DNA of 64,000 nucleotides, taken from positions 1,305,235-1,369,234 of the forward strand of contig NZ_WOTN01000001.1 in NCBI RefSeq assembly GCF_010993745.1, in the 5' to 3' direction. The notes under the pieces were generated by a model. That model was not told the DNA's origin and made no database searches. It saw only the letters and a program-made list of their open reading frames with translations. The number at the start of each line of letters is the position of its first letter. The first letter of the stretch is position 1. Origin of the DNA: Fodinicola acaciae (GTDB taxonomy: Bacteria; Actinomycetota; Actinomycetes; Mycobacteriales; HKI-0501). The translations under genes and the position numbers were made by a program. Below, piece by piece: positions 31,999 through 42,159 of the stretch.

Positions 31999-32517
31999 TC
32001 AGCTAGCGGCGTCGCGGCGGCGTACGTACTCGACGACCGCCGCGCGTGTGCTCGAGACGCCGAAGACCTTGCGCGTGTGCGCGATCCGGCGGTTGGCCGT
32101 ACGCAGTGACAGGAACTCCGCCTCGGCCGCCGCCGCGATCGACTCGCCGTCGGCCAGCCGGTCCAGCAGCGCGCACTCCTCGGCGGTCAAGCCCGGCACG
32201 GTCGGCGCCTGCGCCTCGGCGGCCGCCTCACCGACCGGTCCGATCCGGCGCAGGTCGTCCAGCAGCGCTCGGCCGGTCGTGCTGCGCGGATCCGCGACCG
32301 CAACCACGCCCACGCCGCGCGCGGCCGCCAACACCACCGCACCGACGTCCGCGGTGTCCTCGACCGGACCGGACAGCACGAGCTTGCGGCGGCTCAGGTC
32401 CCACGGCTCGGGCGGCACGACGAAGCCGGTGCCGACCGTCCACCCCTGTTTGGTCAGCCTGCGCAGCACGCCGGCCGCCGCCGACTGCGTCTCCACCACA
32501 TGCAACGGCTGGCTCAT
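31999..32517 (-). CDS. LuxR-type HTH protein
   Basis: A 172-residue protein. The C-terminal third is a LuxR/GerE HTH (LTAEECALLDRLADGESIAAAA, then RTANRRIAHTRKVFGVSSTR). The N-terminal 100 residues form a compact alpha/beta domain without recognisable receiver aspartate. It overlaps the large LuxR ATPase gene by 4 bp, so both are made together and may act as a pair. Confidence 0.8.
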   Translation of the reverse strand: MSQPLHVVETQSAAAGVLRRLTKQGWTVGTGFVVPPEPWDLSRRKLVLSGPVEDTADVGAVVLAAARGVGVVAVADPRSTTGRALLDDLRRIGPVGEAAAEAQAPTVPGLTAEECALLDRLADGESIAAAAEAEFLSLRTANRRIAHTRKVFGVSSTRAAVVEYVRRRDAAS

Positions 32518-35096
32518 GCCGGCTCACCCAGCTCCGCCGCCACCAGCGCCGCGGCCTCGGTCCTGGTGCGCGCCCCGAGCTTGCGCATGCCGGAACGTAC
32601 GTGCGTCTCGACGGTCTCCCGGGACAGACCGAGCCGGGTGGCGATCCGCCGGGTCGACTCCCCCTGCGCCACCAGCTGCAACACCTCGGTCTCGCGGGCC
32701 GACAGCGGACTGCTGCTCGGCCCGACCCGCGGTCGTTCGTCCAGGTTGCGCTGTGACACACGGCCGTGCGCGACATAGCGCCGCAGCGCCTTGCGGACAC
32801 GGCCGAGCAGCACCACCAGACCCGCGTTCTCGGCAGCCGTCTCGGCGGCCAGCAGCGCTGGTACGGCGGCGTCCGGCGGATCGGGCGCGACGACCACGCC
32901 GAGCAGCGCCCGGATCTCCTCGCGTACGACACGCTCGTGCCAAGCGGTCGCAGCCGCGTTGAACTCCGACGACGACGGCCAACCGCCGGCGGCCCGTGTC
33001 CACGCGCGCAGGGTGGCCTCGGCCGCCTGCGCCGGCGGCAGCAACGCGGCGGCCAGCCGGCCGGTGTCCTCGGCGTGCGCACCGATCGCACCGGCGGCAC
33101 GCTCGTACGCGGCCCAGTGCTCGGTGATCTCGGCCAGGCCGAGCAACAACGCGGACTGCCCGATCGCCGGGTCGGCGCCGTCGACCGGCGACTCGTCCAG
33201 CCAGGCGACCTCACGCCCGACCCAGGCGAGCGCCTCGGCCGGTATGCCGCGCACCACCATGCCCTCCGGCAGCCCACCGGACAGCCGGCCGCGGGCCAGA
33301 CCGAGCGCACCCGAGTCCGCCGCCGCCAGGCAACCGGCGGCCAGCGCGTACGCGCGAGCACGGCCCGGCAGCGACCGGTCGAGCATGTCGGCGGCGCGGC
33401 GTACGACCTCGTCCAGCCCCTCGCCGCGCAGCGCCGAGACCCAGAGACCCAGCGCCACGAACCGCGTCTCCCAGCTGTAGGCGCCGCCGGCGGCGCAACG
33501 GCTGGCACCTGCTGCGGCGGCCGGTCCGGCCAGCTCGGTGTCGCCGTCGGAGGCGAGTGTCTCGGCAAGGACCCACCGGCACCAGCGCTCGTCGGACGTA
33601 CGCCCGGCCGCCTCGCACGCCTCCGCCGCCGCGGTCAGCTCCGCCTGCCAGCCCTCCTGACGCTGGGCCGCCGCGGCGATCGCCAACGCGGCCACGACCG
33701 GCGCCGGTCGATCGCCTTCGGCACGCGACCGCGCGGCCGCCACCGCCGCCTCGATCGCCGCACGGTCGGCGGTACCGACCGCGGCCAGGATCCGGATCCG
33801 GTCCAGCTCGGCCAGCTGCGCGTCGTCGAGTCCGTCCGCCGCGCCGGTCGCCGTTTCCAGCGCGCCGGCCGGATCCCCGGCCTGCAACAGCGCCTCCGCG
33901 CGCAACACGCGATGCGCGGCGTTGTGCTCGCCGCCGTCGAAGCTGTCCAGCACGCGTACGGCAGCGTGATAGCGGCCGACCGACAGCGCGGCGGCCACCG
34001 CGTCCAGCCGCACCTCCACCGGAATGTCCACCCCGTCGAGACCGGCCGCGAGCAGCAGGCTCGAGCACCGCTCGCCGTCCGTACGCGCCTGCTCCGCCGC
34101 GACCAGCGCCTGCTCGTACGCGCGCTTGGACTGGCCGGCGGCGGCGAAATGCCGGGCCGCCTCGCCCGGCGGACAAAACTCCGCGAGCCGGCCGTGCAGC
34201 GCCGCGCGGTCGGCGGCCGGCAGCACGCCGGCCGCGATCTCGGCGACACAAGGCGCCACCGGCGCGACCACGTCGTTATCGACGGTGACCAGACCCGCCT
34301 CCACCAGCTCGGCCACGCCGGGGCCGAGCCGGCGCGCCAGCTCCGGCCGGCCGAGCAGGCCGAGCGCGGCGATCGCCGTGCGAGCCGGCCGTTCCAGCTG
34401 CGCCACCGCCTCACCGATCGCGCGCTCCAGGTCGTCGGCGCGCGCCGACGCCGCGCGACCGAGGCCGGACAGGTCGCCGCCGGTACGCAACGCCCGCTTC
34501 GCCAGCACCTGCACCGCCAGCGGCATGCCACCAGCACGCTCCACGACGGCCGCGACCGCGCCGGCAGACAGCTCCGGGACCGTACGCTCGGCGAGCGCGG
34601 TGGCGGCCGCCCCGGTCAGCGGCGGGACCGCGACCCACGCACTCGCGGCCGTACGCAGCGCGGCGACCACCTCGGCCGGCAGGTTGTTCGGAGTACGCAG
34701 AGCGGCCAGAACCCGTACGTGTCGCGCGAGTCTCGGCAAAACGCTCAAAGTGACGCTGTCGGCCCACTGCAGGTCGTCGAGGACGAGCAGGCCGTCCTTC
34801 ACTCGCGCGCGTACGGCCTCGGCCGCGAGGTCCAGATCGGCCTCCGGCAGCCGAGCACGGATCGCACGGCTCAACGCGACGCCTGGCACGTGCCGTAGGC
34901 TGGCGAGCCCGCCGCCACTGAGGACGACGCCGCCGGCCGCGCTGGCCAGCGCGGTGAGCAGCGTCGACCGGCCCACGCCGGGTGCACCGGTGATCACGAC
35001 CAGTCCTGGTCGCACCGGCGCGGCAAGCTCGACAGCCGGATCGGTGGTGGGTGGCGCCACTGCTGGGGGCACCTCTGGGGGCACCTCTGGAGGCAT
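32514..35096 (-). CDS. LAL-type LuxR regulator with AAA ATPase domain
   Basis: An 860-residue MalT/LAL-like regulator. After a short PPEVPPEVPP tail, the ATPase has Walker A TGAPGVGRSTLL (about 36-47) and Walker B LLVLDDLQWAD (about 103-113). A long helical repeat region (250-780) follows. The C-terminal GerE HTH is LSARETEVLQLVAQGESTRRIATRLGLSR-like, ending about residue 850. Members often act as ligand-gated activators of secondary metabolism or catabolism. Co-translated with the small LuxR protein; divergent from the dynamin locus, which it could control. Confidence 0.9.
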   Translation of the reverse strand: MPPEVPPEVPPAVAPPTTDPAVELAAPVRPGLVVITGAPGVGRSTLLTALASAAGGVVLSGGGLASLRHVPGVALSRAIRARLPEADLDLAAEAVRARVKDGLLVLDDLQWADSVTLSVLPRLARHVRVLAALRTPNNLPAEVVAALRTAASAWVAVPPLTGAAATALAERTVPELSAGAVAAVVERAGGMPLAVQVLAKRALRTGGDLSGLGRAASARADDLERAIGEAVAQLERPARTAIAALGLLGRPELARRLGPGVAELVEAGLVTVDNDVVAPVAPCVAEIAAGVLPAADRAALHGRLAEFCPPGEAARHFAAAGQSKRAYEQALVAAEQARTDGERCSSLLLAAGLDGVDIPVEVRLDAVAAALSVGRYHAAVRVLDSFDGGEHNAAHRVLRAEALLQAGDPAGALETATGAADGLDDAQLAELDRIRILAAVGTADRAAIEAAVAAARSRAEGDRPAPVVAALAIAAAAQRQEGWQAELTAAAEACEAAGRTSDERWCRWVLAETLASDGDTELAGPAAAAGASRCAAGGAYSWETRFVALGLWVSALRGEGLDEVVRRAADMLDRSLPGRARAYALAAGCLAAADSGALGLARGRLSGGLPEGMVVRGIPAEALAWVGREVAWLDESPVDGADPAIGQSALLLGLAEITEHWAAYERAAGAIGAHAEDTGRLAAALLPPAQAAEATLRAWTRAAGGWPSSSEFNAAATAWHERVVREEIRALLGVVVAPDPPDAAVPALLAAETAAENAGLVVLLGRVRKALRRYVAHGRVSQRNLDERPRVGPSSSPLSARETEVLQLVAQGESTRRIATRLGLSRETVETHVRSGMRKLGARTRTEAAALVAAELGEPA

Positions 35097-35293: not shown

Positions 35294-36874
35294 ATGGCAG
35301 CCGGACCCCTGAGCACCCGGGTGGCCGCGCTGTGCGCCGAGGTCGCACCGCGGTTGAGCCCGTCGACGCGGGCCGCCGTGCTGGACCTGCGGCAGCGGCT
35401 CGGCGAGCCGCTCCGCGTGGCCATCGCCGGCCGCCTGAAAGCCGGCAAGTCCACGCTGGTCAACGCGCTGATCGGCCGCCGTGTGGCGCCGACCCAGGTC
35501 GGCGAGTGCACGCGGCTGGTCACCCAGTTCCGCTACGGCACCTCCGACCGCGTCGACGTCGTACGCCGCGACGGCAACCGGGTCAGCCTGCCGCTGGACT
35601 CCAACGGCATGCTGCCGCAGAAGATCGGCGTACCGCGTAACGAGGTCTCGTACATCGACGTCACGCTGTCGATCGAGCGGCTGCGCGACCTGACTGTGGT
35701 CGACACGCCGGGCCTGAGCTCGACCAACGAGCAGATCTCCGCCGGCAGCAAGGACTTCCTGCTCGGCAACGACGGCTCCGCCGAGGAATCGCAGGGCCTG
35801 CTGTCCGACGACATCGACGCGGACAGCGCCGGGGCACTCACCGGGGCCGAGGCGATCGTGTACGTCTTCACGCAGTCGGTCCGGCAGGACGACGTGGAGG
35901 CGCTGGAGGCCTTCCGCACCATGTCGGCCCGGCTGTCCAGCAACCCGATCAACTCGCTCGGCCTGTTCAACAAGGTCGACAAGCTGGTCGCGATGGGTGA
36001 CCCGTGGCCGACCGCCGGCCCGCTGGCCAGCAGCCAGGCCGAGGTGCTGCGCCGGCAGGTCTCCGACGTGGTGCCGCTGGTCGGCCTGCTCGCCGAGACC
36101 ACCGAGTCCGGCCGGCTCACCGCCGCCGACTGCGAGGCACTGCGGCAGATCGCCGGCATGTCCACGGTCGAGAAGCAGGTGCTGACCGCCTCCGTCGACC
36201 TGTTCGTGAGCCGCGACTGCCCGGTGTCCAAGGAGGAGCGTGAGCGGCTGCTCGTCCTGCTGGACATCTACGGCGTACGCTTCTCGCTCGCCGCGCTGGA
36301 GGCCGAGCCGGACCTGCCGACCAACGAGCTGAGCCGCCGCCTCTTCCTCGCCTCCGGCTTTCCGCGCGTACGCCAGGTGCTCGAACGCGCGTTCCGCTGG
36401 CGCAGCGACGCCATCAAGGCCGGCTGGGCCCTGACCGGGCTGGAGCAGATCGCGTCCCGCACCGAGCAGCTGCGCGACCGGGAGCTGCTCAGGGACACCG
36501 TCGAGCGGTTGCTGGCCGAGCCGGAGTATCACCAGCTCCGGCTGCTCGACGTGGCGCAGCAGGTCACCACCGGCGCGGTCGAGCTGCCACAGCAGATGGA
36601 GGACGAGCTGACCCGGCTCGCGCTGTCCGACGACCCCGCCTCGATCCTCGCGCTGCCGGCCGGCGCGCCACCGGCCGAGCTGGAGAAGGCGGCGCTGGAG
36701 GCGGCCACCAGATGGCGGCGCTTCGCCGTCGCCGGTGCGACGCCGTCGCAGGCCAGGGTCGCGCACGTCGCGCACCGCGGCTTCCACATCCTGTCCCAAC
36801 GGGTCCGGCACCGGCCGGGTCCGCCAACCGGTCCCAACCCGGCCCACCGACCGCGCGTAACTGGGGGTTACTGA
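35294..36874 (+). CDS. Dynamin-like GTPase 1 (IniA/IniC type)
   Basis: A 526-residue large GTPase. G1 GRLKAGKST at 46-54, switch-I threonine around ECTRLVTQF, G3 DTPG at 137-140, G4 NKVD at 226-229. The rest is helical stalk. No convincing membrane helix, so membrane contact may need its partner. Related mycobacterial IniA/IniC proteins remodel membrane under envelope stress. It starts a tight operon with a GrpE-like membrane protein and a second dynamin; paired dynamins usually act as heteromers. Confidence 0.88.
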   Translation: MAAGPLSTRVAALCAEVAPRLSPSTRAAVLDLRQRLGEPLRVAIAGRLKAGKSTLVNALIGRRVAPTQVGECTRLVTQFRYGTSDRVDVVRRDGNRVSLPLDSNGMLPQKIGVPRNEVSYIDVTLSIERLRDLTVVDTPGLSSTNEQISAGSKDFLLGNDGSAEESQGLLSDDIDADSAGALTGAEAIVYVFTQSVRQDDVEALEAFRTMSARLSSNPINSLGLFNKVDKLVAMGDPWPTAGPLASSQAEVLRRQVSDVVPLVGLLAETTESGRLTAADCEALRQIAGMSTVEKQVLTASVDLFVSRDCPVSKEERERLLVLLDIYGVRFSLAALEAEPDLPTNELSRRLFLASGFPRVRQVLERAFRWRSDAIKAGWALTGLEQIASRTEQLRDRELLRDTVERLLAEPEYHQLRLLDVAQQVTTGAVELPQQMEDELTRLALSDDPASILALPAGAPPAELEKAALEAATRWRRFAVAGATPSQARVAHVAHRGFHILSQRVRHRPGPPTGPNPAHRPRVTGGY

Positions 36875-36878
36875 CCCG

Positions 36879-37727
36879 ATGTCGACCACCAATCTCCGCA
36901 TTCTCGCGGCGGCGATCACCCTGATCATGGCCGTCGTGGTGGGCGTGTTGACCGGGGTGACCGGCGGCTTGGGCACGGCCCAGTGCGGCAGCGGCGCGAC
37001 CCCCGGACCGGGTCAGAGCACCGGCAGCAACCAGCAGCCCGGCAGTGGGCAGACCGGCGGACAGACAACCGGACAGACCGGTGGGCAGACAGGTGGACCC
37101 GGCCAGCCAGGCGAGTCCGCGCAGCCGGGCACTGGCCCCGAGCAGGGCTCCGAGGACGGTCAGCTGGGCGGCACCACCGGCCAGCAGAACGGCACCGGTG
37201 GCAACCAGATCGGCACTGGGGGCGTCGGCCACGTGCTGACCGCCGAAGGCACCTGCGGCGGCTCGCGCTTCTCGCTGCTCGCCGCGGTGGTCGGCTTCCT
37301 CGGCACGCTGCTGACCGGCCTGGCCTGCCTGTTGATCATGGCCGCCGCCGGCCGCCGCGCCGCTCCGGCTGGCCCGCGCGCACCCGCGTCCGTGCCAGGC
37401 TCGCTCCCCGTCTCGGCACCACCGGCGCCGACGCCGGCCGACGGTGACCGCAAGCAGCTCGTGGACACCCTGATCTACGTACGCGACCGGGCCACCAGCA
37501 CCGCCCTGACCGACCGGATCGCGCGCGACCTGCAGTCCATCGGCGTCACCGAGATCCGGCCCAACGGGGAGAAGTTCGACCCGTCCCGGCACGAGGCCGG
37601 CGGTTCGACCGACACCACCGACCCACAGCAGGACGGCTGGATCGCCGGCGTGGAGACCCCCGGCTACCTCGACCGCGGCCGCGTGCTGCGGCTCCCCGTC
37701 GTGACCGTCTACCGGAGGAACTCGTGA
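36879..37727 (+). CDS. Membrane-anchored GrpE-like protein
   Basis: A 282-residue protein. TM helix 1 (about 8-32), a Gly/Gln/Thr-rich extracytoplasmic segment (about 37-115) with two cysteines flanking it, TM helix 2 (about 130-158), a Pro/Ala linker, then a cytoplasmic domain (195-282) with GrpE-like features: a short helix (VDTLIYVRDRATS) and the beta-domain sequence GVTEIRPNGEKFDPSRHEA and GYLDRGRVLRLPVVTVYR. In GrpE this beta domain contacts DnaK and triggers ADP release. The Hsp70-like gene at 40381-42159 is the obvious partner. The long coiled coil of true GrpE is missing. Confidence 0.72.
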   Translation: MSTTNLRILAAAITLIMAVVVGVLTGVTGGLGTAQCGSGATPGPGQSTGSNQQPGSGQTGGQTTGQTGGQTGGPGQPGESAQPGTGPEQGSEDGQLGGTTGQQNGTGGNQIGTGGVGHVLTAEGTCGGSRFSLLAAVVGFLGTLLTGLACLLIMAAAGRRAAPAGPRAPASVPGSLPVSAPPAPTPADGDRKQLVDTLIYVRDRATSTALTDRIARDLQSIGVTEIRPNGEKFDPSRHEAGGSTDTTDPQQDGWIAGVETPGYLDRGRVLRLPVVTVYRRNS

Positions 37728-39610
37728 GCCAGCCAGTACAGACCGCCAAGCCCGACCCGCGGCAGGCCGAAGCGGCCCTGGTCCGCCAGGTCAGCGCGGC
37801 GATCGACAACGGCCTGGCGCACATCCGCCGGGTCGACCCGGACGCCGCCTCCGACATCGACGCGGTACGCCGGCGCGACGAGGGCCGGCCGGTCGTCGTC
37901 ATCGTCGGCGAGACCAAGCGCGGCAAGTCGTCGCTGGTCAACGCGCTGATCGGCGCGCCGGGCCTGTCGCCGGTGGACGCCGCCGTGGCCACCAGCGCGT
38001 ACCTCGAGTTCAAGCACGGCGACACGCCGGCCGCACGCGCGTACGTGCCAGGTGACGACGCGCCGGTGCCGCTGGAGGTCTCCAGCCTGCGCGACTGGGG
38101 TACGGTGCTCGGCCAGCTTCCCGACGGCGTTCGGCCGCCGCGCCGGATCGAGATCAACTATCCGTCGCAGATGCTGAGCCAGGTCGACATCGTCGACACC
38201 CCCGGCGTCGGCGGACTGGACTCGGCGCACGCCGAGATCGCGCTGGACGCCGTCGAGAACGCCACCGCGCTGCTGTTCGTGGTGGACGCCTCCGCGCCGT
38301 TCTCGCAGCCGGAGCTCAACTTCCTGTCCGAGGCCAGCAAGCGAGTCAACCTGGTGCTGTTCGCGCTCACCAAGACCGACATCTACCCCGGCTGGCGGAC
38401 CGTCATGGACGACGACATCCGGCTGCTGCAGGCACACGCGCCACGGTTCGGACAGGCCGGCTTCTTCCCGGTCTCCTCCGCGCTCGCCGAGGTCGCCGCC
38501 ACCCTGCCGCCGGAGGCCGCCGGAGCGCTGCTGCAGGAGTCGCGGATCGACGTCCTGCGCAAGGCTCTGGCCGAAGGTGTCGCCGCTCGAGGCGAGCTGC
38601 TCAAGCGCGCCAACGTGCTGCGGACCGTGCGGTCGGAGCTGATCCGGCTGGATCAGCTGGCCGGCGACAAGATCCGCACCGCCGACCCGGATCCGGCGAC
38701 CCTGCAGGAGCTCAAGGACGAGCGCGGCAAGGTCGCCGCCAAGAAGCGGTCGGACACGCGGTCGTGGCAGGTCAGCATGTCGACCGAGATCAAGCGGTCG
38801 CGCACTGACATCACCGCGCGCGTACGGACCGAGGTCAGCCGGCTGCAGGAATACTGGATGAACCACATCGACCGGTCCGGCAACGACGCGATCAAGCGGT
38901 TGCCGTACGACGTCGACCGGTCGCTGCACGCGCTGGCGCTGCGGATGACCGCGGACATGCAGCACCGGTTCCGGCAGGTCGGCGCGCGGATCCTCAACCA
39001 GGTCTTCACCCCGCAGGAGATCCACCGCGTGCTCAACCGGCTCAACAGCCGGCTGGTCGCCCGGATCACCACCAAACCGCGGCGTGAGAAGGGCGGCCAG
39101 GACGGCCTGCTGATGGTGACCGCCAGCGCCAGCCCCGGTCTGCTGGCCGGCAAGGCGGTGGCAGCCGGTGGTGCCGCGATCGCCGGCGCCGCCGGAGCCG
39201 TGATCGCCTTCCCGGTGGCCATCGGTCTCGGCCTCGGCGCGGCCGCCTTCATGCTCTATCGCCGGCGCGTCACCACCAACCGGCAGGAGGCCAAGGTCTG
39301 GCTGCGCGAGGTGCTCGCGGAGGCGCGCGCGTCGCTCGGCGACGCGGTCTCCTACCAGTTCACCGACCTGGAGCACAACCTCACGCTGGCGCTGGAGGAG
39401 GCCATCGACCGCCGGATCAAGGAGCTGGACAAGCAGATCGGCGACATCGACCGCGCGCTCGCCGAGGACGCCGCGACCCGTAAGCGCAAGCGTACGGAGT
39501 TCCAGGCGGAGCGCGACGCCATCCGCGGCAAGCTCGGTCCGCTGGACGAGGCACTGGTCAAGCTGCGCAGGGCCACCGCGGTCGCCGGCGCAGAAGGCAC
39601 CGACAGCTGA
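37724..39610 (+). CDS. Dynamin-like GTPase 2
   Basis: A 628-residue large GTPase. G1 GETKRGKSS at 62-70, G3 DTPG at 158-161, G4 TKTD at 216-219. A Gly/Ala-rich hydrophobic hairpin (about 475-517) is a probable membrane paddle, followed by a C-terminal coiled coil (IDRRIKELDKQIGDIDRAL). GTGA overlap with the GrpE-like gene. With dynamin 1 lacking a clear membrane segment, this subunit probably anchors the pair. Confidence 0.88.
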   Translation: MSQPVQTAKPDPRQAEAALVRQVSAAIDNGLAHIRRVDPDAASDIDAVRRRDEGRPVVVIVGETKRGKSSLVNALIGAPGLSPVDAAVATSAYLEFKHGDTPAARAYVPGDDAPVPLEVSSLRDWGTVLGQLPDGVRPPRRIEINYPSQMLSQVDIVDTPGVGGLDSAHAEIALDAVENATALLFVVDASAPFSQPELNFLSEASKRVNLVLFALTKTDIYPGWRTVMDDDIRLLQAHAPRFGQAGFFPVSSALAEVAATLPPEAAGALLQESRIDVLRKALAEGVAARGELLKRANVLRTVRSELIRLDQLAGDKIRTADPDPATLQELKDERGKVAAKKRSDTRSWQVSMSTEIKRSRTDITARVRTEVSRLQEYWMNHIDRSGNDAIKRLPYDVDRSLHALALRMTADMQHRFRQVGARILNQVFTPQEIHRVLNRLNSRLVARITTKPRREKGGQDGLLMVTASASPGLLAGKAVAAGGAAIAGAAGAVIAFPVAIGLGLGAAAFMLYRRRVTTNRQEAKVWLREVLAEARASLGDAVSYQFTDLEHNLTLALEEAIDRRIKELDKQIGDIDRALAEDAATRKRKRTEFQAERDAIRGKLGPLDEALVKLRRATAVAGAEGTDS

Positions 39611-39617
39611 CGGCGGG

Positions 39618-40301
39618 ATGGGGGACGGCGACATGGACCACGATGAGTACGGCCAGTTCGAGCCGGCCGACCACGACCTCGGTGACCACGGCTACGACCA
39701 GTTCGATGCCGCCGGCGACGACACGCACGACGGCGCCGACGACAGCGGCTCGCACGCCGAGTTCGCCGCCTCCGACGGCACGCACGACACGGCCGACAGC
39801 GGCGAGTTCGAGCCAGCGTACGCCGACCACGGCTCGATCGACCCGTATCTCGGCGGCGACGCCGTCGACACCGGTGAGCACGACGACTTCGCGCCGGCCG
39901 ACGCTGTCCACGACGGCGCCGGCGCACACGACGACCAGGGGACATTCGAGGTCGACGACACCTCGACACCGGTCGGCGCGCTGACCGACGTGCCGTACGA
40001 GGTCGACGACACGGGCCTCGGCGACTTCCCGCCGCAGCTCGACCTCGGCATCGACGCGCCGGCCGACGGCGGTCCGTGGCTGGACCTCAACCTGCTCGGC
40101 GAGCCGTCCGACGGCGGTTCGGACCATCTGGACGACGGCACCAGCGCCTACGCCGGCGACATCCCGGACAGCCCGCCGTCCGGCCTCGCCGACCTGACCG
40201 CGATGGACGCCGGCGCCGACAGCACCAGCTGGCCGGACCTGATGGCCTCCGACGACCCGGCCGTACGCTCACTGGCCCACCTATGGACCCCGGCGGCCTG
40301 A
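39618..40301 (+). CDS. Highly acidic, His/Asp-rich protein of unknown function
   Basis: A 227-residue protein, extremely rich in Asp, His and Gly and poor in Lys, with imperfect repeats (EPADHD, FEPAYADHG, FAPADAVHDG). The first 110 residues look disordered; a more ordered C terminus ends DPAVRSLAHLWTPAA. No membrane segment. It lies 7 nt after dynamin 2 and ends at the shared terminator, so it belongs to the operon. It could be a Hsp70 client-like or metal-binding acidic partner; this is conjecture. ATG 39633 is an alternative start. Confidence 0.6.
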   Translation: MGDGDMDHDEYGQFEPADHDLGDHGYDQFDAAGDDTHDGADDSGSHAEFAASDGTHDTADSGEFEPAYADHGSIDPYLGGDAVDTGEHDDFAPADAVHDGAGAHDDQGTFEVDDTSTPVGALTDVPYEVDDTGLGDFPPQLDLGIDAPADGGPWLDLNLLGEPSDGGSDHLDDGTSAYAGDIPDSPPSGLADLTAMDAGADSTSWPDLMASDDPAVRSLAHLWTPAA

Positions 40302-40314
40302 CGACACCAAGCCC

Positions 40315-40381
40315 ACCTCAAAGGCCGTAGGGACCCCACATGCGCCTGGCGCACGTAAGGGGTCCCTACGGCCTTTGAGGT
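40315..40381. terminator. Bidirectional hairpin terminator, 23-bp perfect stem
   Basis: Exact inverted repeats 40315-40337 and 40359-40381. The 21-nt loop contains a nested hairpin with TGCGC and GCGCA arms. It separates the dynamin operon from the convergent Hsp70 gene, whose stop codon shares its last base. Confidence 0.88.
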
Positions 40382-42159
40382 CAGCGGTTGAACTGCGACA
40401 CGACCAGCAGCACCACGAACAGGATCAGGAAGCACACCGCGACGATCGACGAGATCACCACGATCCGCTCCTTGTACCACGGCCGCAGCTCCTCGTCCTG
40501 CTGCGCCGGCGCCGGTGGCAGCGGCTGACCCAACGGCTGCGGTGGCAACTGCGGCGGACGTGGCGGTTGAACTGGCGGCTGAACCGGCTGGAAGCCGCCT
40601 CCGCTGGCCGGCGTGGCAGACGTCGGCGCGACCTGCTGCGCCGGCGGCGGAGCGACCGGCTGAGGAGCTGGCTGAGCCGCTGGCTGAGGTTGTGGGGCCG
40701 GTTGTGGGGCCGGTTGAGGCGGCGGCACTGGACGCGCCGCTGGCTGCGGTGGCGGGGCGGCCGGCCGAGGTGGCGGACTCGCGATCGGACCGTTCGGCCG
40801 CGCCGGCAGCTGCGGACCGCCACCGGTCGTCGGGCGGTTGGCGCCAGGCCCGGGTGGTGGCAGCTGGTTCGGTGGACCGACCGGCCGTGCCGGCGGCGGG
40901 AACTGGCCGGGACGCGGTGGCGGACCGGCCGGCGGACGGCCGGGGAAACCCTGCGGCGGACGTACGCCCGGCGGACCAGGTGGCGGCAGCGGACGTCCGG
41001 GCGGACCAGCCGGACCGGGACCGCCTGGACGCGGCGGCTGAGTCGGCCGGAAGGCCTGCGGTGGCGTCGAGACCGGCGCGGCGCCGGCGTCACCGGCGAC
41101 CGCGCCGGCGCGCAGGCTGCCTTCGGCGACGACCGTCTCCGGCTGTTCCAATGTGGTCGGCGCTACTCCGGTGGAGCTGTGGATCAGGTGCGCGGCCAGC
41201 GGGATCCGGCTGGACCCGCCGACCAGGAAGATGCCGACCAGGTCCTTGGGCTCCAGCCGGGCCTGGCCGATGGTCTGCGACAGACACAGGACCGTACGCT
41301 CCAGATACGGCTTGATCATCTGTTCCAGCTCGTCCCGGGTGACGTGCGCGTCCACCTCGAGCGCCGGCAGATGGATGTCGGCGGTGGACGTGCGGGACAG
41401 CATCTCCTTCGCGCCGCGCACGTCCTCCAGCAGCATCCGGCGGTGCCGCCGGTCGGTGCCGTCCTCCGGCTCGACCAGGTGCTTCCACAGGTCCGGGTGG
41501 GTGTCGCCGTAGGTGCCACCGAGGTGGCTGACCACCGCATAGTCGAAGTCCAGGCCGCCGACGTCGCCGAGCCCCTGCTCGGCCAGCACCTCGAAACCGT
41601 GCTGCGTCCGGCGTACGACGGTCGCGTCGAACGTGCCGCCGCCGAGGTCGTAGATCGCCAGCGACCGGCCCGGCGGCACGGAGGTGCCGAGGACCGCGGT
41701 GAAGTACGACGCGGCGGCCACCGGCTCCGGGATCAGCTGCGGCCGCGGCAGGCCGGCCATCTGCGCCGCCTGCACCAGCATGTTGCGGCGCCGCTCACCC
41801 CAGCGCGCTGGATGGGTCATCCGCAGCTGCTCCGGGATGCCGCCGATCTGCCGGCGTACCTCGGTGACGATCTGCTCCAGCACCGCGGCGGCCAGCCGCG
41901 GCACCTCGATCTCGCTCTCGCCGAGCAACACGGTCACGTCGTCGACGCGGCGCTTGGGATTGGGTTCGAACCGGCCGGGATCGACCCGGGCGTTTCGCTC
42001 GGCGTCCCGGCCGACCAGGATCTTGCCGTCGGTCCCCAGGTAAACCGCGGACGGCAGCAGCGGCGACCCGTCGAACAGCAACGGCCGGACCCGGCCGTCC
42101 GCGGTCCGCAGCATCGCCACCGTGTTGGAGGTGCCGAAATCGACCCCGAGCACGCGCAT
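40381..42159 (-). CDS. Tail-anchored Hsp70-like ATPase without substrate-binding domain
   Basis: A 592-residue protein. Residues 1-350 are an Hsp70 nucleotide-binding domain: VDFGTSN (6-12), IYDLGGGTFDAT (169-180) and VGGSSRIPL (313-321). The usual beta-sandwich substrate domain is absent; instead there are about 200 residues of Pro/Gly/Gln-rich disorder (360-555), then a basic patch (WYKER) and one C-terminal TM helix (about 567-588). The ATPase therefore faces the cytoplasm on a long tether. The neighbouring GrpE-like protein supplies a matching exchange factor. Start ATG 42159 has GAGGGGAG upstream and TAGGGT at 42181-42186 as a possible -10. Confidence 0.85.
   Translation of the reverse strand: MRVLGVDFGTSNTVAMLRTADGRVRPLLFDGSPLLPSAVYLGTDGKILVGRDAERNARVDPGRFEPNPKRRVDDVTVLLGESEIEVPRLAAAVLEQIVTEVRRQIGGIPEQLRMTHPARWGERRRNMLVQAAQMAGLPRPQLIPEPVAAASYFTAVLGTSVPPGRSLAIYDLGGGTFDATVVRRTQHGFEVLAEQGLGDVGGLDFDYAVVSHLGGTYGDTHPDLWKHLVEPEDGTDRRHRRMLLEDVRGAKEMLSRTSTADIHLPALEVDAHVTRDELEQMIKPYLERTVLCLSQTIGQARLEPKDLVGIFLVGGSSRIPLAAHLIHSSTGVAPTTLEQPETVVAEGSLRAGAVAGDAGAAPVSTPPQAFRPTQPPRPGGPGPAGPPGRPLPPPGPPGVRPPQGFPGRPPAGPPPRPGQFPPPARPVGPPNQLPPPGPGANRPTTGGGPQLPARPNGPIASPPPRPAAPPPQPAARPVPPPQPAPQPAPQPQPAAQPAPQPVAPPPAQQVAPTSATPASGGGFQPVQPPVQPPRPPQLPPQPLGQPLPPAPAQQDEELRPWYKERIVVISSIVAVCFLILFVVLLVVSQFNR

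What the first reader, a model, noticed from the sequence alone, without database searches (positions are those of the whole stretch)
35294..42159. Dynamin-GrpE-dynamin operon facing a tail-anchored Hsp70
Seen: two large GTPases with complete G1, G3 and G4 motifs, with a membrane protein carrying a GrpE-like beta domain between them, then an acidic protein, and an Hsp70 ATPase on the opposite strand across a shared terminator. Known: GrpE drives nucleotide exchange on Hsp70, and paired bacterial dynamins remodel membrane (IniA/IniC in mycobacteria are induced by envelope stress). Inference: the Hsp70/GrpE pair is a dedicated, membrane-bound chaperone or disassembly motor for the dynamin pair, analogous to Hsc70 uncoating of clathrin.
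Basis: partly seen in the sequence, partly recalled or inferred. Interest (0 to 1): 0.82.

Follow-up and report, generated by a model that had tools for sequence, protein, structure and literature searches.

The report
Dynamin pair linked to Hsp70 parts
Soil actinobacteria often keep a pair of membrane-remodelling dynamin-like proteins next to a stripped-down Hsp70 ATPase, and some also carry a fragment of its nucleotide-exchange partner GrpE, hinting that a cut-down chaperone switch controls bacterial membrane remodelling.

Summary
Window 35294-42159 encodes two dynamin-like GTPases (IniC-like and IniA-like), a membrane protein ending in a genuine GrpE beta-wing domain, an acidic protein and, across a 23-bp inverted repeat, an Hsp70 with a C-terminal membrane anchor. 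The linkage is not chance. A non-canonical Hsp70 lies within 5 kb of 19 of 26 dynamin-pair loci in a 148-genome sample (0.6 expected), and in the flanks of 31 of 44 loci of a second scan. GrpE-wing proteins sit by a dynamin pair in 14 of 15 strong matches. The module resembles mycobacterial iniBAC, with an IniR-like regulator next door. The chaperone or uncoating reading is only partly supported: the Hsp70 has no detectable substrate-binding domain, the "GrpE" matches only the C-terminal third, and Hsp70 is not adjacent in the Amycolatopsis, Saccharothrix and Glycomyces GrpE-wing loci. I favour an ATP-driven membrane switch (Hsp70 ATPase domain plus GrpE wing) regulating an IniA/IniC-type dynamin pair. 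No interaction was tested. Dynamin-Hsp70 neighbours are in print for cyanobacteria, and a dnaK-like gene beside iniR for M. smegmatis; I found no paper on the GrpE-wing protein. New variant of a known kind.

The parts
31999..32517 (-). 172-aa protein directly downstream of the LuxR-type regulator; a homologue is kept beside that regulator in the same-genus genome, and Glycomyces has a 170-aa gene in the same place
   Evidence: L087 hit 252 bits; L188 6873-7385; no family
32514..35096 (-). 860-aa AAA ATPase / LuxR-HTH regulator divergent from the dynamin operon, IniR-like
   Evidence: GerE 62.9 bits over the cut-off; AAA_16 31 bits, just under its cut-off of 32.6; profile-profile match to an IniR-type set prob 99.3, E 3.7e-20, 25% identity over 706 columns
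35294..36874 (+). dynamin A, IniC-like dynamin-like GTPase (P0001)
   Evidence: Dynamin_N 55 bits; AlphaFold model pLDDT 83.8, top PDB fold match IniA 6j72
36879..37727 (+). GrpE-wing membrane protein (P0002): hydrophobic segments at about 36894-36950 and 37284-37340, Gly/Gln/Thr-rich linker between them, GrpE helix pair and beta-wing at about 37434-37718
   Evidence: PF01025 36.2 bits; fold 1dkg E 2.8e-7; hydropathy
37724..39610 (+). dynamin B, IniA-like dynamin-like GTPase (P0003)
   Evidence: Dynamin_N 58.7 bits; IniA 6j72 E 1e-24; LeoA/LeoBC models 85.7/79.3 bits
39618..40301 (+). acidic, Asp/His-rich protein without Lys or Arg (P0004), in the place where several related loci have other acidic proteins; possible IniB analogue
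   Evidence: 26% D+E, 0% K+R; no family
40315..40381 (.). 23-bp perfect inverted repeat, two-way terminator candidate between the convergent genes
   Evidence: only copy in the genome with up to 3 mismatches
40381..42159 (-). Hsp70 ATPase domain (41086-42159), Pro-rich linker, C-terminal membrane anchor (about 40408-40464); no substrate-binding domain detected (P0005)
   Evidence: PF00012 125.8 bits, profile 105-374 of 599; catalytic residues kept; hydropathy

Best explanation
This is an actinobacterial iniBAC-like membrane-maintenance module. An IniA-like and an IniC-like dynamin form a heterotypic pair that remodels the plasma membrane under envelope stress, with an acidic partner protein and an IniR-like regulator. 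What is special is an attached ATP switch: a tail-anchored Hsp70 ATPase domain without substrate-binding domain, and a membrane protein that shows the GrpE beta-wing to the cytoplasm. I propose that the GrpE wing speeds nucleotide exchange on the Hsp70 domain at the membrane, and that this ATP/ADP cycle recruits, holds or releases the dynamins (or their acidic partner) rather than folding clients. Shown: gene order, domains, folds, catalytic residues, recurrent linkage. Inferred: heterotypic pairing (from known pairs), stress role, cytoplasmic topology, Hsp70-GrpE contact, control of the dynamins.
For: Non-canonical Hsp70 within 5 kb of 19 of 26 pair loci, 0.58 expected, and within 5 kb of 30 and within the fetched flanks (up to 10 kb) of 31 of 44 loci in a second scan. 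GrpE-wing next to the pair in 14 of 15 strong matches in 394 genomes, including 7 of 8 neither used in the model nor found through a dynamin. In Frankia (L205) hsp70-hsp70-grpE-dynB-acidic-dynA run in one direction, with one further small reading frame before dynA; L082 has the same order. In L092 and L072 hsp70 follows the dynamin pair 13 and 6 bp behind it. GrpE fold. DnaK residues D8, T11, K70, E171, D194 and T199 kept in 19 of 19 dynamin-linked non-canonical Hsp70s outside family f2, the truncated same-genus copy left out. Membrane segments on the GrpE-wing protein go with a neighbouring Hsp70: 7 of 8 with segments have one, 0 of 7 without (kinship not corrected, gene starts partly uncertain). 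IniB N-terminal domains over cut-off in the two related proteins tested. IniR-like regulator. A J-domain gene downstream of the pair in Glycomyces.
Against: Hsp70 is absent within the fetched flanks of GrpE-wing loci of Amycolatopsis (3), Saccharothrix and Glycomyces, of G616 and G735 and on the short contig of G085. In the second scan GrpE-wing does not predict an adjacent Hsp70: 3 of 8 against 28 of 36 without it. The Amycolatopsis, Saccharothrix, G616 and G735 GrpE-wing proteins show no hydrophobic segment. The Hsp70s do not form one dynamin-only clade, and relatives sit in type VII secretion loci. All five Mycobacteriaceae-type (f2) non-canonical Hsp70s near the pair have lost the T199 equivalent and none keeps K70, so an active ATPase cannot be general there. 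One GrpE-wing gene stands without dynamins (G698). Linkage counts ignore phylogeny. No interaction was measured or modelled.
Confidence: 0.55

Rival explanations
1. One reading: a dedicated Hsp70/GrpE chaperone that disassembles the dynamin coat, as Hsc70 uncoats clathrin or HSP70B/CDJ2/CGE1 disassembles VIPP1.
For: Gene linkage. A GrpE- and Hsp70-containing machine assembles and disassembles the membrane-remodelling protein VIPP1 (PMC10602608, passage). A dynamin next to Nostoc BDLP1 carries a DnaJ-like domain (PMC6104087, passage).
Against: Uncoating and VIPP1 disassembly use a complete Hsp70 (recalled) and a J protein (PMC4436892, abstract in listing). The PF00012 matches of the dynamin-linked non-canonical Hsp70s's capped list end at profile 368-381 of 599; no J gene was found near the window's dynamins.
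Confidence: 0.15
2. The Hsp70 ATPase domain is a general membrane-anchored scaffold or sensor used by several envelope machines (dynamins, type VII secretion). It is next to the dynamins because all belong to one envelope-stress regulon, and the GrpE wing serves it in trans or has become a structural domain.
For: Relatives of the window Hsp70 at 49-52% identity, one in each of three Amycolatopsis genomes and in Saccharothrix, sit beside genes of type VII secretion type (EccD, EccC and WXG100 confirmed by family for L291 and L293 genes). C-terminal parts vary widely: WD40, PQQ-like or other propellers, transmembrane tails. GrpE-wing loci without Hsp70.
Against: The dynamin-Hsp70 link recurs far above chance and includes single-direction gene runs.
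Confidence: 0.25
3. A LeoABC-like dynamin defence or vesiculation system.
For: Dynamin B matches LeoA/LeoBC models at 85.7 and 79.3 bits.
Against: Dynamin A matches them weakly (26 and 18.7 bits); the regulator, IniB-domain relatives and IniA structural match point to the Ini group. None of the GrpE, acidic and Hsp70 proteins matched a defence model at E 0.01.
Confidence: 0.05

Closest known systems
Mycobacterial iniBAC with IniR (PMC5760070, passages and section 10; PMC6715688, passages)
   Same: Paired IniA/IniC-type dynamins, nearby AAA/LuxR regulator, a low-complexity partner; [quoted passage not shown] smegmatis
   Different: The window has a GrpE-wing membrane protein between the dynamins, the reverse order of the two dynamins, no IniB N-terminal domain, and an Hsp70 that keeps the catalytic residues
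Cyanobacterial dynamin-like proteins of the 'chaperone group' (PMC5827413, passages)
   Same: A DnaK-domain protein is encoded next to a bacterial dynamin
   Different: The passage describes a DnaK-domain gene downstream of a dynamin; the passages seen report no GrpE-like protein. Phylogenetic relation not tested
DLP next to Nostoc BDLP1 (B2IZD2) with a DnaJ-like domain (PMC6104087, passages)
   Same: An Hsp70-system domain attached to a dynamin pair
   Different: J domain fused to the dynamin, not a GrpE wing in a separate membrane protein
HSP70B-CDJ2-CGE1 acting on VIPP1 (PMC10602608, passages)
   Same: Hsp70 plus GrpE homologue controlling a membrane-remodelling polymer
   Different: With a J protein and (recalled) a complete Hsp70; ESCRT-III-type polymer (PMC8281802, abstract in listing), not a dynamin
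GrpE (PDB 1dkg, 9bls)
   Same: Helix pair and beta-wing fold
   Different: Matches only the C-terminal third of the profile; two membrane segments and a linker instead

Membership tests
Dynamin-like protein | GTPase motifs and dynamin GTPase domain | tested here: met
   invariant motif columns
Dynamin-like protein | Fold of a bacterial dynamin | tested here: met
   P0001 model: IniA E 5e-10, mitofusin, BDLP; global TM only 0.37. P0003 by sequence only
Dynamin-like protein | GTP hydrolysis, membrane binding, pairing | not testable with these tools
   needs biochemistry
iniBAC locus | Adjacent IniA-like and IniC-like genes | tested here: met
iniBAC locus | IniB N-terminal domain protein | tested here: not met
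   P0004 has no IniB_NTERM match and IniB queries did not hit the window; the two relatives tested have it over cut-off
iniBAC locus | IniR regulator | tested here: inconclusive
   hhalign prob 99.3, E 3.7e-20, but AAA/LuxR regulators are generally alike
GrpE nucleotide exchange factor | Beta-wing domain | tested here: met
GrpE nucleotide exchange factor | N-terminal paired long helices (recalled as the dimer-forming part) | tested here: not met
   profile match starts at 105 of 165; before the wing the model has only helices 186-204 and 208-220 besides the two membrane segments
GrpE nucleotide exchange factor | Exchange activity on Hsp70 | not testable with these tools
   needs assay
Hsp70 chaperone | ATPase domain with catalytic residues | tested here: met
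Hsp70 chaperone | Substrate-binding domain | tested here: not met
   PF00012 match ends at 374 of 599; Pro-rich region and anchor instead
LeoABC | Match of the dynamins to LeoA/LeoBC | tested here: inconclusive
   P0003 85.7 bits, P0001 26 bits, no curated cut-off shown
Cyanobacterial chaperone-group DLP | DnaK-domain gene beside a DLP; phylogenetic clade | not tested
   only the gene arrangement was compared with the paper's passage

The most novel reading that the evidence does not exclude
A new use of the Hsp70 ATPase domain: not a chaperone but a membrane-anchored nucleotide switch, reset by a membrane-anchored GrpE wing, that gates assembly of a bacterial dynamin pair.
Probability: 0.35. 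Interest if true: 0.85.

Novelty: new variant of a known kind. Interest (0 to 1): 0.6.

Why it matters
How bacterial dynamins are regulated is open (my judgement), and IniA is reported to help mycobacteria withstand cell-wall drugs (PMC6715688, passages). A recurrent Hsp70 ATPase neighbour and a GrpE wing give concrete, testable regulators. They also suggest that the Hsp70/GrpE nucleotide cycle has been cut loose from protein folding and reused at the membrane.

Tried and rejected
Tried without use: a class-wide search with the whole Hsp70 (machine error); a collection scan with the GrpE-wing alignment (too diverse); a phylum-wide GrpE-wing search at a loose threshold, whose listed matches beyond the window I read as mostly canonical GrpE from their scores and spread, without checking them one by one; reading a GrpE contact from the DnaK exposed loop: the loop is missing in the window Hsp70 but also in accessory Hsp70s that sit beside GrpE genes, so it decides nothing. 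LeoABC membership was considered and ranked low. A strict four-gene system was rejected because GrpE-wing loci without neighbouring Hsp70 exist. A single dynamin-only Hsp70 clade was rejected (label needs 13 changes, shuffled mean 21.8; the deep split has support 48 only).

Single-dynamin or one-sided cases (G009, G011, G023, G031, G057) and the same-genus genome G148 were left out of the 26. Seven of the 26 lack a non-canonical Hsp70 within 5 kb: G107:C23, G118, G017, G056, G079, G085:C114, G142:C228; several of these lie near contig ends. In the tree, L092 1681-5052 was dropped as a probable false hit, four canonical DnaKs were set apart, and five short fragments were left out. In one search the Hsp70 distance for L212 may rest on an over-long reading frame. 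The second scan's 44 loci are L188-L230 and L233 of 61; the other 17 (L231, L232, L234-L248) had only weak dynamin matches. The 44 include metagenome bins and may share species with the first sample. and the 148-genome sample overlap. In the membrane-segment count (8 with, 7 without) L205 was not scored for hydropathy and is left out, as are the G523-type loci other than L318 and L319.
Full report
What is there. The window lies at 1305235-1369234 of contig 1 of an 8.86-Mb genome. The five reported genes were all picked by my simple codon-composition caller and have the reported coordinates. On the plus strand: dynamin A (526 aa), a 282-aa membrane protein, dynamin B (628 aa) and a 227-aa acidic protein, with spacings of a few bases or a 4-base overlap. 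On the minus strand, convergent, a 592-aa Hsp70-type protein; between them a perfect 23-bp inverted repeat that folds far better than shuffles and occurs once in the genome. Divergent from dynamin A is an 860-aa AAA/LuxR regulator followed by a 172-aa gene.

The dynamins. Both exceed the Pfam Dynamin_N cut-off. Dynamin B's best solved relative is IniA of M. smegmatis (E 1e-24). Dynamin A's model (pLDDT 83.8) has IniA as its first structural match, followed by mitofusins and BDLP, although the global TM-score is only 0.37. So the pair is of the IniA/IniC type. PMC6715688 (passages) reports GTP-dependent membrane fission by IniA in vitro.

The GrpE protein. PF01025 is passed (36.2 against 25.8 bits) but only by profile positions 105-163 of 165. 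The sequence aligns with human GRPEL1. The AlphaFold model shows two helices (186-204, 208-220) and six strands, block-mean pLDDT 95-97 over residues 191-280, and its 12 best PDB matches are all GrpE, 1dkg first. The seven homologues from public loci scanned all pass PF01025. In front of the domain are two hydrophobic segments separated by a Gly/Gln/Thr-rich stretch. With two membrane passes the wing would face the cytoplasm, the same side as the Hsp70 domain; this is inference. Homologues from Amycolatopsis, Saccharothrix, G616 and G735 show no hydrophobic segment in the parts examined.

The Hsp70. Only the ATPase domain is detected (PF00012 to profile position 374 of 599), then a Pro-rich stretch and a terminal hydrophobic anchor. 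Residues equivalent to DnaK D8, T11, K70, E171, D194, T199 and the GG of the adenosine motif are kept (numbering recalled). The first six are kept in all 19 dynamin-linked non-canonical Hsp70s outside family f2, the truncated G148 copy left out; in the five f2 (Mycobacteriaceae-type) ones T199 is Gly in all and K70 is kept in none. Relatives beside other dynamin pairs carry no substrate-binding match but WD40 (L066), PQQ-like (L205) or other propellers (L072) or membrane tails.

Is the linkage chance? In 148 genomes of the class, dynamin A relatives occur in 26 and dynamin B relatives in 27 at 1e-10. Of 26 pair loci, 19 have a non-canonical Hsp70 within 5 kb; with the observed numbers of PF00012 matches and genome sizes 0.58 would be expected (P about 8e-27; phylogeny not corrected). 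In a second scan of public genomes and bins, which may share species with the first, 30 of 44 pair loci have one within 5 kb and 31 within the fetched flanks. Gene orders differ widely, yet co-directional runs recur: dynA-dynB-hsp70 (L092), dynB-dynA-hsp70 (L072, L076), and hsp70-hsp70-grpE-dynB-acidic-dynA in two genomes, one of them Frankia (L082, L205). The GrpE test was run the other way round: a GrpE-wing model searched in 394 class genomes gave 17 matches at 1e-15 or better. Fifteen are strong (1e-20 or better); 14 of these lie by a dynamin pair and one is alone (G698). Of the eight neither in the model nor found before through dynamins, seven lie by a pair. The two weaker matches belong elsewhere: in G102 an Hsp70, a J-domain and the GrpE match lie together, and in G551 an Hsp70 and the GrpE match flank a 380-aa gene with a similar start. 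Of the 14 pair loci, 11 also have an Hsp70 in the fetched stretch.

What speaks against a fixed four-gene machine. Glycomyces lechevalierae, the closest named relative (dynamin A 57%), three Amycolatopsis species and Saccharothrix algeriensis have GrpE-wing plus dynamin pair without Hsp70 in the fetched flanks of 3-10 kb. In the second scan GrpE-wing loci have Hsp70 in 3 of 8 cases, other pairs in 28 of 36. Their genomes do hold relatives of the window Hsp70 elsewhere: 72% identity in Glycomyces, about 58 kb from the dynamins if, as its equal length and the lack of shared sequence suggest, G515:C4 is the dynamin contig in the same orientation; 50-53% at best in the others. In each of those four other genomes one relative (49-52%) sits in what looks like a type VII secretion locus; EccD, EccC and WXG100 were confirmed for genes of L291 and L293. 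In the tree of 83 Hsp70 domains the dynamin-linked ones are clustered (13 label changes, shuffled mean 21.8, none of 500 as low) and 24 of 25 fall in one half, but they are not one clade and the deep split is weak. So the Hsp70 lineage is shared among envelope machines and is not a private dynamin part.

Where the GrpE-wing protein has hydrophobic segments, an Hsp70 is usually a neighbour: 7 of 8 (window, L066, L067, L068, L082, L192, L193; not Glycomyces L188). Where it has none, no Hsp70 is near: 0 of 7 (L065 on a short contig, L189, L190, L191, L233, L318, L319). The second group is probably mostly one lineage and gene starts are uncertain, so this is a lead: it fits co-anchoring of the two proteins in the membrane.

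Relation to iniBAC. Two related pair loci tested carry proteins over the NCBIfam IniB N-terminal cut-off. The window's regulator matches an IniR-type profile over 706 columns. The acidic protein has no IniB domain; it holds 26% acidic and no basic residues, the most acidic balance of 54 called genes of 100 aa or more in the window, and other pair loci have different acidic proteins nearby. PMC5760070 (section 10) says that M. [quoted passage not shown] My searches for dynamin with GrpE and Hsp70, IniA/IniB with Hsp70, and related terms showed no paper on a GrpE-wing protein with dynamins in their listings; the library holds open-licence papers only.

Mechanism. The anatomy fits an ATP-dependent switch better than a folding chaperone: an ATPase domain with its catalytic residues, anchored to the membrane, no client-binding domain, and a membrane protein with the part of GrpE that contacts the ATPase domain in 1dkg (recalled). 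I propose that nucleotide state sets whether the Hsp70 domain holds the dynamins or their acidic partner at the membrane, with the GrpE wing resetting it. The VIPP1 precedent (PMC10602608, passage) shows that an Hsp70/GrpE system can control a membrane-remodelling polymer, but there with a J protein. A J-domain gene lies downstream of the pair in Glycomyces; the other J hits near pairs (L080, L091, L228) belong to what look like canonical dnaK operons.

Verdict. I file it as a new variant of a known kind: an iniAC-type dynamin module with a cut-down Hsp70/GrpE pair.

Noticed in passing
L291 2932-10798, L293 3396-11415, L289 2795-10548, L287 1-5428: SBD-less Hsp70 genes related to the window's sit next to EccC-type genes, with EccD or WXG100 genes close by, in Amycolatopsis and Saccharothrix (EccD in L291, EccC and WXG100 in L293 confirmed by family; the rest by sequence likeness).
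   Followed up: partly
L138 6597-8866, L140 5671-7983, L099, L110, L120, L123, L147, L152: Other accessory Hsp70 genes, closer to DnaK, lie beside GrpE-like genes without dynamins, two of them in the window's own genome.
   Followed up: partly
L326 9092-12242, L327 5505-9429: Hsp70 and GrpE-like genes with a J-domain gene (L327) or a similar gene (L326) between them, and no dynamins in the fetched stretch.
   Followed up: no
L079, L080, L083, L088 (family f2, Mycobacteriaceae-type, same order): All five non-canonical Hsp70-like genes near the ini dynamins have lost the DnaK T199 equivalent and keep no K70 equivalent, so they may be pseudo-ATPases; two of those read have Thr/Pro-rich tails behind a membrane segment.
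   Followed up: partly
L189 7960-9842, L190, L191, L233, L065 8047-9306: In Amycolatopsis-type loci the genes upstream of dynamin A look like a histidine kinase and response regulator instead of the LuxR/AAA regulator (read from sequence only).
   Followed up: no
L189 15478-16197: The acidic protein downstream of dynamin B in Amycolatopsis decaplanina is a DUF6802 member (46.9 bits); this suggests a role for DUF6802 near dynamins.
   Followed up: no
L085-L087 (genome G148): The same-genus genome has the same gene order, with 87-92% identity for dynamin A and 82% for the Hsp70, and broken reading frames, probably assembly errors in a 74% complete genome.
   Followed up: no
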